This document shows positions 40,871-45,556 of a stretch of DNA of 64,000 nt, in pieces. Source of the DNA: Stackebrandtia nassauensis DSM 44728 (GTDB lineage Bacteria; Actinomycetota; Actinomycetes; Mycobacteriales; Micromonosporaceae); NCBI RefSeq assembly GCF_000024545.1, contig NC_013947.1, positions 2,728,001-2,792,000 of the forward strand, read 5' to 3'. The translations under genes were made by a program, and so were the position numbers. Within the stretch, counting starts at the first letter, position 1; each line of letters begins with the position of its first letter. The notes under the pieces are model-generated. The model was not told the origin of the DNA. It saw only the letters and a program-made list of their open reading frames with translations, and did no database searches.

Positions 40871-41560
40871 TCAGCTCCGCGCGTCCAGCTTGGGGATCGC
40901 GACGCAGTTCTCGTGGTCCGTGAATATCGCGTCGTTCTCGCGGGGGGCGCAGAACACGGTGTCGTCGGCGATCTCGGTGGAGTCGGGGAGCTCGAAGCCG
41001 ATGACGCCGATGAGCGTCTGGCCGGGTTCCAACGGGACACCGCCGCCGTCCCCGTTGTGCCAGTCGTGTTCCCGCCACTGGTCGTCGGCCACCTTCTCGA
41101 GTTGGCCGGTGACCGAGGCGTTACCGAGGCAGATACCGTTCTCCGGCTGCTGGTTCCCGTTCAGGGCCTTCTCGCAGTCCTGTGCGCTGGCTCCGCTGCG
41201 CAGCCCCAGGGTCAAGGCGTGGAACTTGGCGTCGTCCAGGCCGCGGTCGTCCAACTCGGTGTTCACCGCGACGTAGACGGCGAGGATGTGGTTGCCCGCC
41301 TGCGCCGTCGAATCGGCCAGTTCGGTCTGCCACGCCGCGTCCACGACCTTCGTCCGCAAGCCCATCGGCGCCGCCAGGTCGACGGCCACGATCTCCTCGC
41401 CGGGAAAGTCGGCGAACTCGGTGTACTTGGGACCGGCGGAGGACGAGGACGACTCCGAGGCAGACTTCCCGCCGGAGGAGTCGCCATCACCGCCACCGGA
41501 GCACGCCGCCAACGCCAGCAGCGAACCCAGGGCGAGCACGGACAAAGAACGAACAGACAT
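40871..41560 (-). CDS. Secreted lipoprotein of unknown function, possible SARP target
   Basis: The 229-residue protein has a lipoprotein signal with lipobox LAAC (MSVRSLSVLALGSLLALAAC), then a Gly/Ser-rich linker and a globular domain (about 45-229) with four cysteines (DCEKAL, GICLG, VFCAP, ENCVA) that could form two disulfides. It faces outside the membrane. Its promoter region carries an 11-bp direct repeat (41622-41641), also present before the secreted-protein gene at 45494, and it is divergent from the SARP gene. Confidence 0.75.
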   Translation of the reverse strand: MSVRSLSVLALGSLLALAACSGGGDGDSSGGKSASESSSSSAGPKYTEFADFPGEEIVAVDLAAPMGLRTKVVDAAWQTELADSTAQAGNHILAVYVAVNTELDDRGLDDAKFHALTLGLRSGASAQDCEKALNGNQQPENGICLGNASVTGQLEKVADDQWREHDWHNGDGGGVPLEPGQTLIGVIGFELPDSTEIADDTVFCAPRENDAIFTDHENCVAIPKLDARS

Positions 41561-41621
41561 GAGGAATCCTTAGGATCGGCCGGACGGTCCCCGGCACCGC
41601 TGCCGGAGATTGTGCCGCGTA

Positions 41622-41641
41622 CCGGCTTCAAACCGGCTTCA
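41622..41641 (-). promoter_or_regulatory. 11-bp-period direct repeat, candidate SARP box upstream of the lipoprotein
   Basis: On the minus strand TGAAGCCGG occurs twice with a period of 11 bases (41633-41641 and 41622-41630), followed 7-8 bases on by a -10-like CACAAT. SARP regulators bind such same-face direct repeats just upstream of the -10 box. The site lies in the gap shared with the SARP gene. Confidence 0.6.
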
Positions 41642-41682
41642 TCGCCGGAATCGGGGCGTGGTGGCTCGGCTAAGGTGTCCGG

Positions 41683-44469
41683 GTGCGTGACGGAGTCGAG
41701 TTCGGAGTGCTTGGTCCACTGCGTATCTCGGCCGCCGACGCGGAGTTGGCGATCACCTCGCCGCGATCGCGCACCTTCCTCGCGCTGCTGGTCCTCAACG
41801 CCGGACGGCAGGTCAGCCTGTACGAGTTCGCCGACGCCATCTGGGGCGCGGCGCTGCCGCAGAACCCCCGCCGCGCGGTGCAGCTGTGCGCGGTCCGGGT
41901 GCGGGCGCAACTGGAACGGATCGGCTCGGGCGAGCTCGTGGTGACCTGCCCCGATGGTTATCGGCTGGACGTCGCTTCGGAGCACACCGACGTCGGGCGG
42001 GTCGCGGCGCTGGTGCGCGACGCCGACGCGGCGTCCGACTCCGACGCCGAGTTGAAGGCGGTGACGGCGGCACTGGCCCTGTGGCGGGGCGAACCGCTGG
42101 CCGACGTCCCGTCCGAAGCGCTGCAACGCGAAGTGGTGCCGGGGCTGCGCGAACAGCAGCTACAGCTGACCGAGCGGCGCGTCGACATCCTGCTGCGTTC
42201 GGAGTCCGCTGCCGACCTGGTGGACGAGTTGGTGACGCTGACCGCGCGCCATCCGTTGCGGGAACGGCTGTGGGGCCAGCTGATGCGGGCACTACAGCAC
42301 CTCGGCAGGCGCGGCGAGGCCCTCACCGCCTTTCACACGTTCCGCCGCCGACTGCGCGACGAACTCGGCATCGACCCCAGTCCGGACCTGAAGGCGCTGC
42401 ACGCTTCCATCCTCACCAGCCAGTCCGAACCCGGTACCGAAGCCGCGTCCCCGTCGCTGCGGGTGCCTCGGGAGCTGCCGACGGATCCGGCGGCGTTCGC
42501 CGGTCGGGTCGCCGAACTGTCCGAACTGGACCTATTGTTGGCCGCCAGCGAGGCAACCCCGCAGCCCGCCGTCGGCGTGATCACCGGTACCGCCGGGGTC
42601 GGCAAGACCTCGCTGGCGATCCACTGGGCCCGGCGGGTGGCCGACGACTTTCCCGACGGGCAGCTGTTCGTCAACATGCGCGGCTACCACCCCGAGCAGG
42701 CCCTCACTCCGCAACGGGTGCTGGCCCGGTTCCTGCGGACCCTGGGCGTACGCGGCCAGGACCTCCCCGAGGACATCGACGAACTGACCGCCATGTATCG
42801 CTCCGTCATGGACGGACGACGCATGCTCATCGTGCTGGACAACGTCAACCACAGCGACCAGGCGCGACCGCTGCTGCCCGGCGCCGCCGGGTGCCTCGTC
42901 GTGATCACCAGCCGCGACGTGCTGTTGAGCCTCATCGCCGCCGACAACGCCAGCCAGATCAGCCTCGACCTGCCCGACACCGCCGACGCCCGGCGGATGC
43001 TGGCCCGGCGGCTGGGTTCCGAACGACTGAGCTCCGAACCGGGAGCCGCCGACGACATCATCGCCGCCAGCGCGCGGTTGCCGCTGGCGCTCGCGATCGC
43101 CGCCGCCCGCGCGGTGATCAACAAGGACACCCGGCTCAGCGCTGTGGCCGAACAACTGCGCGCCGGTCTCGATGCCTTCGACACCGCGTCCCCCATGACG
43201 GACGTGCGCGCGGTGTTCTCGTGGTCGTACCAGGCGTTGAGCCCGGACGCAGCCCGGCTGCTGCGACTGCTGGGCCTGCATCCCGGCTCGGACGTGTCGG
43301 CGGCGGCGGTGGCGAGCTTCGCCGGTCTGTCGCCGAGCCACACCGACCGTCTGCTCGCGGAGTTGGTGCGGGCACATCTGGTGATCGGGGACGTTCCCGG
43401 GCGGTACGCGCTGCACGACCTCATGCGTGAGTACGCCGTGGAACTCGCGAATGCCGAGGATTCCGAAGCTGATCGAGACCTCGCTTTCCGCCGCCTACTC
43501 GATCACTACGTGCACACTGGACGCACGGCGGCGACTCTGCTCAACCCATACTGGCGCCCACTGGCGCTGGATGACGCGTTCGCCGGGGTCCATCCGGAAG
43601 ACCTCGCCGACTACGACGCGGCAATGGACTGGTTCGCCGCCGAACGCGACGTGCTGATCGCCGTCCTGGACTGGGCGGTGAGCGCCGGGTTCGATCGCCA
43701 GATCGTGCAGTTGGTGTGGGTCCTCGCCGGATATCTTGAGCGGCAGGGTCCCTGGACGCAATGGGCCAGCACTCATCGGGACGCGATCGCGGCCGCACAA
43801 CGGCTCGGCGAGCCGGTACTCGAAGCCCGAGCGCATCGCGGGCTCGGCCTGGCCAATCTCCGGATGTCCCGCATCGAGGACGCTCACCGTCACTTCGCGA
43901 GGGCCCTGGAGTTGTATCGCGACAGCGACGACCTGGAAGGCATGGCGCGTGCCGAGTCGGCGTTGGCGCTGGTGCGCGAGGAGCAGCGCCGGTATCCCGA
44001 GGCTCTCGAGCACGCACTGCGGGCCCTCGAGCATCAGAAGCGGATCGGTGGTGGTGTCGGTTACGCCAACGCGCACAACACGGTGGGCTGGTGCCATGCG
44101 CTGGTGGGTCAGTACGACGAGGCTCTCGACCATGGCGGACAGGCGCTCGCCGAGCATCGGGCAGTGGGCAACCCCGTAGGGGAGGCGGCCACTTTGGACA
44201 CGATCGGCTTCGCCCATCATCATCTGGGGCAGTTCGCCGAAGCCATCGACAGCTATCGCGAGGCTCTTCGGCTGTACCGGCAACTGGGGGACCGCTACTT
44301 CATCGCGTGCGCTCTCGACCATCTGGGCGACACCTATGAAGCCCTTGGGGATCGCGCTTCGTCGCTCGACATGTGGCGTGAGGCCGTGTCGACCCTGGAC
44401 GGTCTCACGCCCCCTGAGACGGAGCAGGTCCGCGCCAAACTGCGCGGCGCCGCCTTCGGGTCCGGCTAG
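41683..44469 (+). CDS. SARP-family regulator with NB-ARC and TPR domains (AfsR-like)
   Basis: This 928-residue regulator has an OmpR-like winged helix (about 5-95, FGVLGPLRISAADAELAIT, then SPRSRTFLALLVLNAG), a bacterial transcriptional activator domain (about 96-245), an NB-ARC ATPase (about 270-560; P-loop GTAGVGKTS near 302-310, Walker B MLIVLDN) and C-terminal tetratricopeptide repeats (about 690-910). This is the AfsR architecture. AfsR-type proteins activate transcription from direct repeats. There is no antibiotic gene cluster beside it; the nearest genes with candidate boxes encode two exported proteins. The start is GTG at 41683. Confidence 0.93.
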   Translation: MRDGVEFGVLGPLRISAADAELAITSPRSRTFLALLVLNAGRQVSLYEFADAIWGAALPQNPRRAVQLCAVRVRAQLERIGSGELVVTCPDGYRLDVASEHTDVGRVAALVRDADAASDSDAELKAVTAALALWRGEPLADVPSEALQREVVPGLREQQLQLTERRVDILLRSESAADLVDELVTLTARHPLRERLWGQLMRALQHLGRRGEALTAFHTFRRRLRDELGIDPSPDLKALHASILTSQSEPGTEAASPSLRVPRELPTDPAAFAGRVAELSELDLLLAASEATPQPAVGVITGTAGVGKTSLAIHWARRVADDFPDGQLFVNMRGYHPEQALTPQRVLARFLRTLGVRGQDLPEDIDELTAMYRSVMDGRRMLIVLDNVNHSDQARPLLPGAAGCLVVITSRDVLLSLIAADNASQISLDLPDTADARRMLARRLGSERLSSEPGAADDIIAASARLPLALAIAAARAVINKDTRLSAVAEQLRAGLDAFDTASPMTDVRAVFSWSYQALSPDAARLLRLLGLHPGSDVSAAAVASFAGLSPSHTDRLLAELVRAHLVIGDVPGRYALHDLMREYAVELANAEDSEADRDLAFRRLLDHYVHTGRTAATLLNPYWRPLALDDAFAGVHPEDLADYDAAMDWFAAERDVLIAVLDWAVSAGFDRQIVQLVWVLAGYLERQGPWTQWASTHRDAIAAAQRLGEPVLEARAHRGLGLANLRMSRIEDAHRHFARALELYRDSDDLEGMARAESALALVREEQRRYPEALEHALRALEHQKRIGGGVGYANAHNTVGWCHALVGQYDEALDHGGQALAEHRAVGNPVGEAATLDTIGFAHHHLGQFAEAIDSYREALRLYRQLGDRYFIACALDHLGDTYEALGDRASSLDMWREAVSTLDGLTPPETEQVRAKLRGAAFGSG

Positions 44470-44484
44470 AGACCCGAAGGCGGC
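44449..44484. terminator. Bidirectional hairpin between SARP and the convergent gene
   Basis: Perfect 14-base arms (44449-44462 and 44471-44484) enclose an 8-base loop that contains the SARP stop codon TAG. The stem therefore includes the last SARP codons. The convergent gene ends at 44493. It probably ends transcripts from both sides. Confidence 0.6.
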
Positions 44485-44492
44485 CACCGGCA

Positions 44493-45494
44493 TCAGACCG
44501 GAATGACGCTGATCAGCGCGTCCTCGGAACGTCCGTGAATGTAGTACGGATGGTAAGCCCGCAGCTGGTGCTTGGCGTAGATCGAGAACACCGGCACGCA
44601 ACCACTACCCGTGACCACCGGCACCTTGGCATTGTGCAGATACACCGGCTGGTGATGCACGTACTGCTGGATCCGGGTGTCATCGGAGACGGTGCTCGTC
44701 TTGCACACCGATCCGTCCTTCTTGAACTGTGTGGCCACCAGTGTCGTCCGCACCGACGAACCCTTCTTGTCGTTGGCCGTCTCCGGGCACGGCGGCTTGT
44801 CCTTGCCGTAACACGTGGTCAACTGGAAATCCCCGAAGACACTCAGACTCTTGGTGCCACTGGGGGCCTGCCACAACCCGGACTCCCCGGGCACCGAGGC
44901 ACTGCCCTTGACCGACGGCGTCCACGCCGGTTTCCCGGCCGAGACGAGCGCCCGGCTCGTGGTGGCCGCCTGCGTCGTACCCCGGTACTTCCCGGCGAGC
45001 TCGACGAAACCACTGGTGAGGCTGACCCGACCCGCGTCGCCCAGCGAGCGCGTCCACAGTGACAGGTCACAGCGGAAACTCGCGGCGGTCTTGGAGGGGA
45101 GCAGGAACCGGGTGGTTAGCGAGACCTTTGACAGCGAACCGCTGCCCGCCGCGTAGACGTTCTGGGCCCGCAGCAGTTTGCGCACCGACGTGCCCTTGCT
45201 GTTGAAGCACTCCAACTGGCTGTCGACCAGGATCCGGGTGGTGGCGTTGCCGAACCGCAGATTGCTGTTGACGTACGCGGCCTGCCCCGCCGACACGTTG
45301 ACGGTCAGCGAAGCCACCTTGACGTGCAGCATGGGCGCGTTGTAGGCGGGCGACCGGTAGGTGGCGGGTTTGACATCCACCCGCGAGGAGTCGGCGGTGG
45401 CCACCTGGGCCACCAGCACCCCGGTCGCCGCCACGACGATGGCGAGGACGGCGTACAACAACCGCCGCAAGCGCGGTCGTTTCGGTTTGATCAC
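44493..45494 (-). CDS. Secreted or membrane-anchored protein of unknown function, possible SARP target
   Basis: The 333-residue protein has a basic N-terminus and one hydrophobic segment (LLYAVLAIVVAATGVLVAQV) that is either a signal peptide or an anchor. The rest (about 35-333) is an extracytoplasmic beta-rich domain with six cysteines. I do not recognise a family. It is preceded by an 11-bp-period direct repeat (45537-45556) nearly identical to that before the lipoprotein at 41560, which links both to the SARP between them. Confidence 0.72.
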   Translation of the reverse strand: MIKPKRPRLRRLLYAVLAIVVAATGVLVAQVATADSSRVDVKPATYRSPAYNAPMLHVKVASLTVNVSAGQAAYVNSNLRFGNATTRILVDSQLECFNSKGTSVRKLLRAQNVYAAGSGSLSKVSLTTRFLLPSKTAASFRCDLSLWTRSLGDAGRVSLTSGFVELAGKYRGTTQAATTSRALVSAGKPAWTPSVKGSASVPGESGLWQAPSGTKSLSVFGDFQLTTCYGKDKPPCPETANDKKGSSVRTTLVATQFKKDGSVCKTSTVSDDTRIQQYVHHQPVYLHNAKVPVVTGSGCVPVFSIYAKHQLRAYHPYYIHGRSEDALISVIPV

Positions 45495-45536
45495 GTGAGC
45501 TCCTTAGCGATGAGCGAACCGCCATCCTGATCGGGT

Positions 45537-45556
45537 CCGGCTTCAGATCGGCTTCA
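45537..45556 (-). promoter_or_regulatory. 11-bp-period direct repeat, candidate SARP box upstream of the secreted protein
   Basis: On the minus strand TGAAGCCGA and TGAAGCCGG occur with an 11-base period, 43 bases before the start codon, with CAGGAT 7 bases further on in the -10 position. The arrangement copies that at 41622-41641. Confidence 0.6.

What the first reader, a model, noticed from the sequence alone, without database searches (positions are those of the whole stretch)
41622..45556. A SARP apparently controlling two exported proteins through matching 11-bp direct repeats
TGAAGCCGG-TT-TGAAGCCGG before the lipoprotein (41560) and TGAAGCCGA-TC-TGAAGCCGG before the secreted protein (45494) have the same period, orientation and distance to a -10-like box (CACAAT, CAGGAT). 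SARPs bind direct repeats of 11-bp period near the -10. The SARP gene sits between the two targets. Most described SARPs control antibiotic clusters or, for AfsR, afsS; an exported-protein regulon would be new. Both targets are uncharacterised.
Basis: partly seen in the sequence, partly recalled or inferred. Interest (0 to 1): 0.75.

Follow-up and report, generated by a model that had tools for sequence, protein, structure and literature searches.

The report
AfsR-type activator of exported-protein genes
In a soil actinobacterium and its relatives, a regulator from a family best known for switching on antibiotic genes appears, from conserved DNA signals alone, to switch on a small scattered set of genes for proteins sent to the cell surface or outside.

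Summary
TGAAGCC-N4-TGAAGCC repeats lie 7 bp upstream of xAnnnT (-10) boxes before the lipoprotein and secreted-protein genes. They are the only sites with at most one mismatch to the 18-base pattern in the 6.84-Mb genome (length equal to Stackebrandtia nassauensis). The gene between them encodes a 928-aa AfsR-like SARP (BTAD, NB-ARC, TPR).

Seven other genomes were found with orthologues (60-64% identical, one clade, 100/100): five of the Glycomyces genus, Phytomonospora, Actinorhabdospora. All 8 keep the box between SARP and lipoprotein gene (a remnant in Actinorhabdospora). The secreted-protein gene sits on another contig in Phytomonospora yet has its own box. Of 49 near-matches in the 8 genomes, 14 have a correctly spaced -10 and lie outside a Glycomyces dispersed repeat; all 14 precede genes of four unrelated exported families. 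Homologues of two families in genomes where no orthologue was found nearly all lack the box (0 of 21; 1 of 15). The recognition helix is invariant in 8 of 8 and differs from AfsR at one of two base-contacting residues.

So: a classical SARP mechanism driving a small, rewired exported-protein regulon. Binding and expression are untested; target functions unknown. EmbR is a precedent for SARPs outside antibiotic control.

The parts
41683..44469 (+). Large SARP regulator, 928 aa: N-terminal ODB/BTAD, NB-ARC, TPR (AfsR architecture); GTG start
   Evidence: Pfam BTAD 1.6e-35, NB-ARC 9.1e-9, TPR_12 8.1e-29; best NCBIfam match AfsR, 549 bits against a cut-off of 1430; aligns to AfsR 8hvr/8k60/8jke and EmbR 2fez
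41622..41641 (-). SARP box 1, TGAAGCCGG-TT-TGAAGCCGG, read toward the lipoprotein gene
   Evidence: conserved in 8 of 8 genomes found with the SARP
41609..41614 (-). -10-like box CACAAT, 7 bp after box 1
   Evidence: sequence
40871..41560 (-). Lipoprotein gene (229 aa, lipobox ALAAC), target 1; homologue(s) beside the SARP orthologue in all 7 relatives found, in Actinorhabdospora only as a remnant
   Evidence: no Pfam or NCBIfam family above cut-off; low-certainty model with a hint of an Ig-like fold
45537..45556 (-). SARP box 2, TGAAGCCGA-TC-TGAAGCCGG, read toward the secreted-protein gene; starts directly after the stop codon of an acetyltransferase gene
45524..45529 (-). -10-like box CAGGAT, 7 bp after box 2
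   Evidence: sequence
44493..45494 (-). Secreted protein gene (333 aa, GTG start), target 2; close homologue (79%) in Phytomonospora on another contig with its own box
   Evidence: no Pfam or NCBIfam match
41671..41676 (+). Possible -10 (TAAGGT) of the SARP gene itself, six bases before its GTG, so possibly a leaderless transcript; inferred
   Evidence: sequence; a similar stretch is seen on the other strand in several relatives

Best explanation
The gene at 41683-44469 encodes a large, AfsR-type SARP that directly activates a small set of genes for exported proteins. Two SARP protomers bind side by side on two TGAAGCC repeats 11 bp apart. The repeats lie on one face of the DNA in place of a good -35 box, 7 bp from a weak xAnnnT -10, and the protein recruits RNA polymerase as AfsR does at afsS. 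The NB-ARC and TPR parts presumably hold the protein inactive until a signal arrives. In S. nassauensis the targets are the neighbouring lipoprotein and secreted protein and probably a second lipoprotein at genome 3903635. In relatives they are the lipoprotein, the secreted protein and a small secreted protein family. Shown: box anatomy, rarity, conservation, association with the SARP clade, export signals. Inferred: binding, activation, sensing, and any common function of the targets.
For: Only two sites with at most 1 mismatch in the genome, flanking the SARP. Box at the SARP/lipoprotein junction in 8 of 8 genomes of a monophyletic SARP clade, support 100/100; mean column identity 96% in the box and 55% in the flanks. 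All 49 near-matches (14-base core, up to 1 mismatch) in the 8 genomes were read: 19 have xAnnnT at the fixed offset; 5 of these belong to the Glycomyces dispersed repeat by their context; the other 14 all precede exported-protein genes, 13 intact and 1 remnant. 13 sites match the core exactly; 11 have the -10 and the 2 that lack it (G178) have the dispersed-repeat context. Chance of xAnnnT is about 2%. The four target families show no similarity to each other by BLAST (best E 0.74). Crude export rate of other genes in the loci: 79 of 534. Small secreted family: box in 3 of 4 copies in SARP-bearing genomes, 0 of 21 elsewhere; secreted protein: 2 of 2, and 1 of 15 elsewhere. Spacing agrees with published SARP promoters (PMC10936776, passages and section 7). 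Recognition helix RRAVQLCAVRVRA identical in 8 of 8; AfsR R92 and R94 kept, T88 changed to Leu.
Against: No binding or expression data. The same repeat occurs in genomes where no orthologue was found, so other SARPs may read it, and S. nassauensis has other SARP-like proteins (15 matches including this one; 14 of 116 candidates scored). A third small-secreted paralogue in Actinorhabdospora has no box, and a paralogue of the 3903635 lipoprotein in S. nassauensis has none. The Actinorhabdospora lipoprotein gene is decayed. The 14 of 14 figure was reached after requiring the -10 and setting aside the dispersed repeat by eye. Eight of the 14 are one orthologous lipoprotein promoter. The third S. 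nassauensis target rests on one genome: no other family genome has a close homologue. Most genomes counted as 'elsewhere' were not themselves searched for the SARP, because one search failed.
Confidence: 0.8

Rival explanations
1. The repeats are real SARP boxes, but another SARP of the genome binds them; the adjacent SARP is a bystander or shares the sites.
For: Similar boxes occur in genomes where no orthologue was found (67 of 354 family genomes, the clade included, have a hit at up to 1 mismatch; some next to other SARP genes). Several SARP-like genes per genome.
Against: The box stays beside this SARP in 8 of 8 genomes, and two unlinked target families carry it almost only where this SARP was found. 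The recognition helix is invariant in these 8. Whether some other SARP is also shared by the 8 was not tested.
Confidence: 0.12
2. The repeats are operators of another OmpR-type regulator that also uses 11-bp direct repeats, such as PhoP, which shares AfsR sites in Streptomyces.
For: PhoP recognises the AfsR repeats at afsS (PMC10972967, passage).
Against: The 14 boxes sit at one fixed distance from a -10, and none of the genes that they precede looks like a phosphate gene. They follow presence of the SARP, whereas PhoP is expected to be near-universal in these bacteria (recalled). No PhoP test was run.
Confidence: 0.04
3. The repeats are a dispersed DNA element or chance, without regulatory role.
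For: Glycomyces genomes do carry a dispersed repeat that imitates the box.
Against: That element has a different context (CCTGAAGC...GCTGAAGC), and 5 of its copies pass the -10 test only in varied surroundings. S. nassauensis has only two close copies of the box; shuffles give 0.01; the box is a conserved island in 8 genomes.
Confidence: 0.02

Closest known systems
AfsR / afsS of Streptomyces coelicolor
   Same: Same domain order (ODB-BTAD, NB-ARC/NOD, TPR); two 11-bp direct repeats overlapping the -35 region of a promoter with a poor -10 (afsS CACTGT, here CACAAT and CAGGAT); the Arg that contacts the first T of the repeat is kept
   Different: 549 bits against an equivalog cut-off of 1430, so not AfsR itself; repeat TGAAGCC instead of CGTT(T/C)ATCGNN; Thr88 replaced by Leu; predicted targets are exported proteins, not AfsS
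EmbR of Mycobacterium tuberculosis
   Same: SARP-family protein acting outside antibiotic clusters; deletion changes secretion-related genes in RNA-seq (PMC9239209, abstract and passages)
   Different: Carries an FHA domain instead of NB-ARC/TPR (PMC10936776); the passages seen give no direct-repeat regulon of small exported proteins
Pathway SARPs (ActII-ORF4, DnrI, CcaR, PimR)
   Same: Heptameric repeats, commonly of 11-bp period, at the target promoter (PMC10972967, passages)
   Different: Targets are biosynthetic genes or their regulators; TCGAGC-like heptamers (recalled) differ from TGAAGCC

Membership tests
SARP family | N-terminal OmpR-type DNA-binding domain followed by BTAD | tested here: met
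   BTAD 1.6e-35; Trans_reg_C 22.4 bits, just below its cut-off of 26.2; aligns with AfsR and EmbR structures over residues 5-248
SARP family | Target promoters with direct repeats of 11- or 22-bp period a fixed short distance from the -10 | tested here: met
   Period 11 and 7-bp gap to xAnnnT at both window sites and at 11 of 13 exact core matches in 8 genomes; rule as stated in PMC10936776. The gap agrees with the published 8 bp to within about 1 bp, depending on where a repeat is said to end
SARP family | Binds the repeats and activates transcription | not testable with these tools
   needs protein and DNA
Large SARP of AfsR type | C-terminal NB-ARC/NOD and TPR domains | tested here: met
   NB-ARC 9.1e-9; TPR_12 8.1e-29, three stretches
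AfsR (orthologue) | Score above the NCBIfam equivalog cut-off for AfsR | tested here: not met
   549.4 bits, cut-off 1430
AfsR (orthologue) | DNA-contact residues of AfsR (S46 Q48 W74 P79 S80 Q81 R87 T88 S91 R92 R94 K95) | tested here: not met
   Window protein keeps S46, W74, P79, R92, R94; changed: Q48R, S80Q, Q81N, R87Q, T88L, S91V, K95A

The most novel reading that the evidence does not exclude
Large STAND-type SARPs of this bacterial family form a regulator class for cell-surface and exported proteins. Unrelated exported genes are recruited or lost by gaining or losing one portable 33-bp promoter module (two TGAAGCC repeats plus -10), while the regulator and its neighbouring lipoprotein stay fixed. 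In the genus of a sister SARP the same module precedes type VII secretion substrates (EspC-like, with a WXG100-like partner), so the class may reach from Sec-exported to ESX-exported proteins.
Probability: 0.35. Interest if true: 0.7.

Novelty: new variant of a known kind. Interest (0 to 1): 0.55.

Why it matters
SARPs are studied mostly as switches of antibiotic clusters, and targets of most large SARPs are unknown (recalled). Here one has a predicted regulon that can be tested with a few promoters, and the predicted targets are uncharacterised exported proteins. It suggests a box-to-helix pairing (TGAAGCC with Q67-L68 in place of AfsR R87-T88) that could be used to predict targets of other SARPs, and a case where one promoter module stands before unrelated genes in different genomes.

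Tried and rejected
Structure of the secreted protein: a single-sequence model had mean pLDDT 40 and was not used. Lipoprotein model: pLDDT 73, pTM 0.70. Its Foldseek hits are weak (none at E <= 0.001; best 1.1e-3); among the top eight are a YxkC-DacA model, a S. aureus putative lipoprotein, a Clostridium beta-sandwich protein and B. subtilis YjhA. This is taken only as a hint of an Ig-like lipoprotein fold (fold name recalled). Profile searches of the PDB with the small-secreted and lipoprotein alignments gave nothing usable. Pfam found no family above cut-off for the lipoprotein, a small secreted protein and the second lipoprotein.

Most Glycomyces pattern hits outside the SARP locus were set aside as a dispersed repeat. 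A first upstream scan was wrong because minus-strand loci were not turned round; one search replaces it. In one search the scan starts from the first matched residue, so for two partial secreted-protein matches (L042, L099) it hardly reaches, or does not reach, the promoter. A family-wide search for SARP orthologues failed, so the clade may be larger than the 8 genomes found by searching 61 genomes, 22 genomes of the Glycomyces-like genus and the species collection by short peptide patterns (best 80 of 128 kept; it did not list G163's orthologue). The export rule is crude. In that call its gene picker missed the true gene after the box at L082 and the remnant at L080, which were judged by reading; the boxes at L076 and L079 (2 mismatches) were outside its threshold and were judged. 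The window scan for PDB relatives used only the first 256 residues of the SARP.
Full report
WHAT IS THERE. Two direct repeats, TGAAGCCGG-TT-TGAAGCCGG (41622-41641) and TGAAGCCGA-TC-TGAAGCCGG (45537-45556), lie on the minus strand 7 bp upstream of CACAAT and CAGGAT and shortly before a 229-aa lipoprotein gene (start 41560) and a 333-aa secreted-protein gene (start 45494). Shuffles of the window give a mean of 0.01 such matches at up to 2 mismatches; the window has 2. The whole genome (6,841,557 bp, one contig; the same length as printed for S. nassauensis LLR-40K-21, PMC3035245, passages) has no other site with 0 or 1 mismatch to the 18-base pattern, two with 2 mismatches, and background at 3. 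The gene between the two targets encodes a 928-aa protein with BTAD, NB-ARC and TPR domains. Its best NCBIfam match is AfsR, far below the AfsR cut-off.

RELATIVES. Protein searches of 61 genomes, the own one included, of 22 genomes of a Glycomyces-like genus and of the species collection give seven orthologues at 60-64% identity, with a gap to about 45% below them: Glycomyces harbinensis, lechevalierae, albidus, terrestris, one more genome of that genus (G163, unnamed), Phytomonospora endophytica (G029) and Actinorhabdospora filicis (G010). With the window protein they form one clade among 30 rows, support 100/100. For the four other genomes of the window's own genus no orthologue-like match was listed (best SARP E-values 2.8e-88 to 1.7e-158) and neither target gave a match at E <= 0.001.

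All seven carry the box between the SARP gene and a divergent lipoprotein gene. Aligned on the box, 17 of 20 box columns are identical in all 8 genomes; mean column identity is 96% in the box and 55% in the flanks. The A and T of the -10 were used in that script to pick the site and are not counted as evidence there. In Actinorhabdospora the lipoprotein gene is an internally shortened remnant.

TARGETS ELSEWHERE. The closest homologue of the secreted protein (79%) is in Phytomonospora on another contig, and the box TGAAGCTGTTCTGAAGCCGG stands before it. Three further boxes, one in Phytomonospora and two in Actinorhabdospora, precede members of a small secreted protein family (62% and 47% identical to the first), of which S. 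nassauensis gave no match. In S. nassauensis a third box (core with 1 mismatch) with CAATAT at the right distance precedes a second lipoprotein whose ATG follows that -10 after six bases. The four target families show no similarity to each other (best BLAST E 0.74).

Reading all 49 sites with at most 1 mismatch to TGAAGCC-N4-TGAAGCC in the 8 genomes: 19 have A and T at the -10 positions of the fixed offset. Five of these 19 belong by context to a dispersed Glycomyces repeat and were set aside by eye. The remaining 14 precede exported-protein genes, 13 intact and the remnant. Without any choice by -10, 13 sites match the core exactly; 11 have the -10 and the two that do not have the dispersed-repeat context. 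xAnnnT occurs by chance at about 2% of positions. Eight of the 14 are the same orthologous lipoprotein promoter, so the independent evidence is four gene families, all exported, against 79 of 534 other genes in these loci by a crude rule.

ASSOCIATION WITH THE SARP. Small secreted family, 25 homologues in 18 of 354 family genomes: box within 420 bp in 3 of the 4 in SARP-bearing genomes and 0 of the 21 others; the chance that three boxes fall among those four is 0.0017 if homologues were independent. Secreted protein, 17 homologues read: 2 of 2 and 1 of 15; the exception is G189, 342 bases upstream. These 17 are 14 of the 15 family matches (L096 was not read) and three of G040. For L042 and L099 the scan hardly reached the promoter. 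Homologues are not independent, and most of these genomes were not searched for the SARP one by one (one search failed), so 'others' means that no orthologue was found.

DNA RECOGNITION. In the AfsR complex R92 contacts the first T of each repeat and T88 the third base pair; changing that T prevents binding, while one change at the third pair does not (PMC10936776, section 7). The window protein keeps R92 (R72) and R94 but has Leu for T88, Val for S91 and Ala for K95. The helix RRAVQLCAVRVRA is identical in all 8 orthologues. The repeat keeps the first T but differs at the next two bases (TGAAGC against TTCAGC in the afsS -35 region), which fits the changed residue but does not prove it. The nearest row outside the clade (97/97), from genome G035, also has Q-L at these places, and G035 has two boxes with 1 mismatch.

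HOW IT LIKELY WORKS. By analogy with AfsR, two protomers on the repeats take the place of -35 recognition and hold RNA polymerase on a weak -10. The NB-ARC/TPR half is expected to gate this by a signal that is not known. Binding, activation and signal are inferred. Common function of the targets is unknown: none tested has a Pfam family above cut-off, and only the lipoprotein gave a usable model, with a hint of an Ig-like lipoprotein fold.

WHAT IS KNOWN. The features of SARP promoters met here are taken from PMC10936776 (passages, section 7) and PMC10972967 (passages). That SARPs act outside antibiotic control has a precedent in EmbR, whose deletion alters secretion-related genes (PMC9239209, abstract and passages). 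Searches for a SARP regulon of lipoproteins or secreted proteins listed none that I recognised by title and start of abstract. They cover open-licence papers only; of their hits I looked into PMC9239209, PMC10972967 and PMC10768272 by passages, the last of which speaks of cluster SARPs only in the passages seen.

LIMITS. The same box is not confined to this clade: 67 of 354 family genomes have a hit at up to 1 mismatch (91 sites by my count, against 17 for the reversed control). Among rows outside the clade 15 have a correct -10: 5 precede genes that pass the crude export rule; 4 precede genes of one EspC-like kind (three tested by Pfam; the fourth by resemblance); the other 6 precede transporter-like or other genes, have no gene close by, or lie inside genes. 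So other SARPs probably read similar boxes.

Noticed in passing
L230, L232, L235, L243 (genomes G035, G367, G368, G371): The same box with CAnCCT at the -10 precedes a two-gene unit: an EspC-like protein (Pfam T7SS_ESX_EspC, 0.00047, 7.1e-7 and 1.8e-6 in the three tested, the first below its cut-off) and, in the one tested, a WXG100-like 251-aa protein (5.9e-5, below cut-off).
   Followed up: partly
L213, L216, L217, L224 and other Glycomyces loci: A dispersed intergenic repeat built of CCTGAAGCnn units, partly in inverted pairs about 120 bp apart, imitates the SARP box by its 11-bp period.
   Followed up: partly
L080 after 7819 (Actinorhabdospora): Lipoprotein gene shortened internally and apparently decaying, while its SARP box and -10 are intact.
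   Followed up: yes
L086 5066 and L083 5698 (genome G034): TGAAGCC boxes near two distant large SARP genes: 60 bp upstream of one (L086), about 800 bp upstream of the other with a further reading frame between (L083). Their recognition helix has His for AfsR R92.
   Followed up: partly
L084 7999-8028 (genome G034): Three consecutive 11-bp repeats before a 1397-aa exported protein with lectin-like (Laminin_G_3) domains.
   Followed up: no
L131, L132, L133, L136 and L134, left of the SARP gene: Two tandem lipoprotein paralogues next to the SARP in four Glycomyces and in Phytomonospora, one in S. nassauensis.
   Followed up: no
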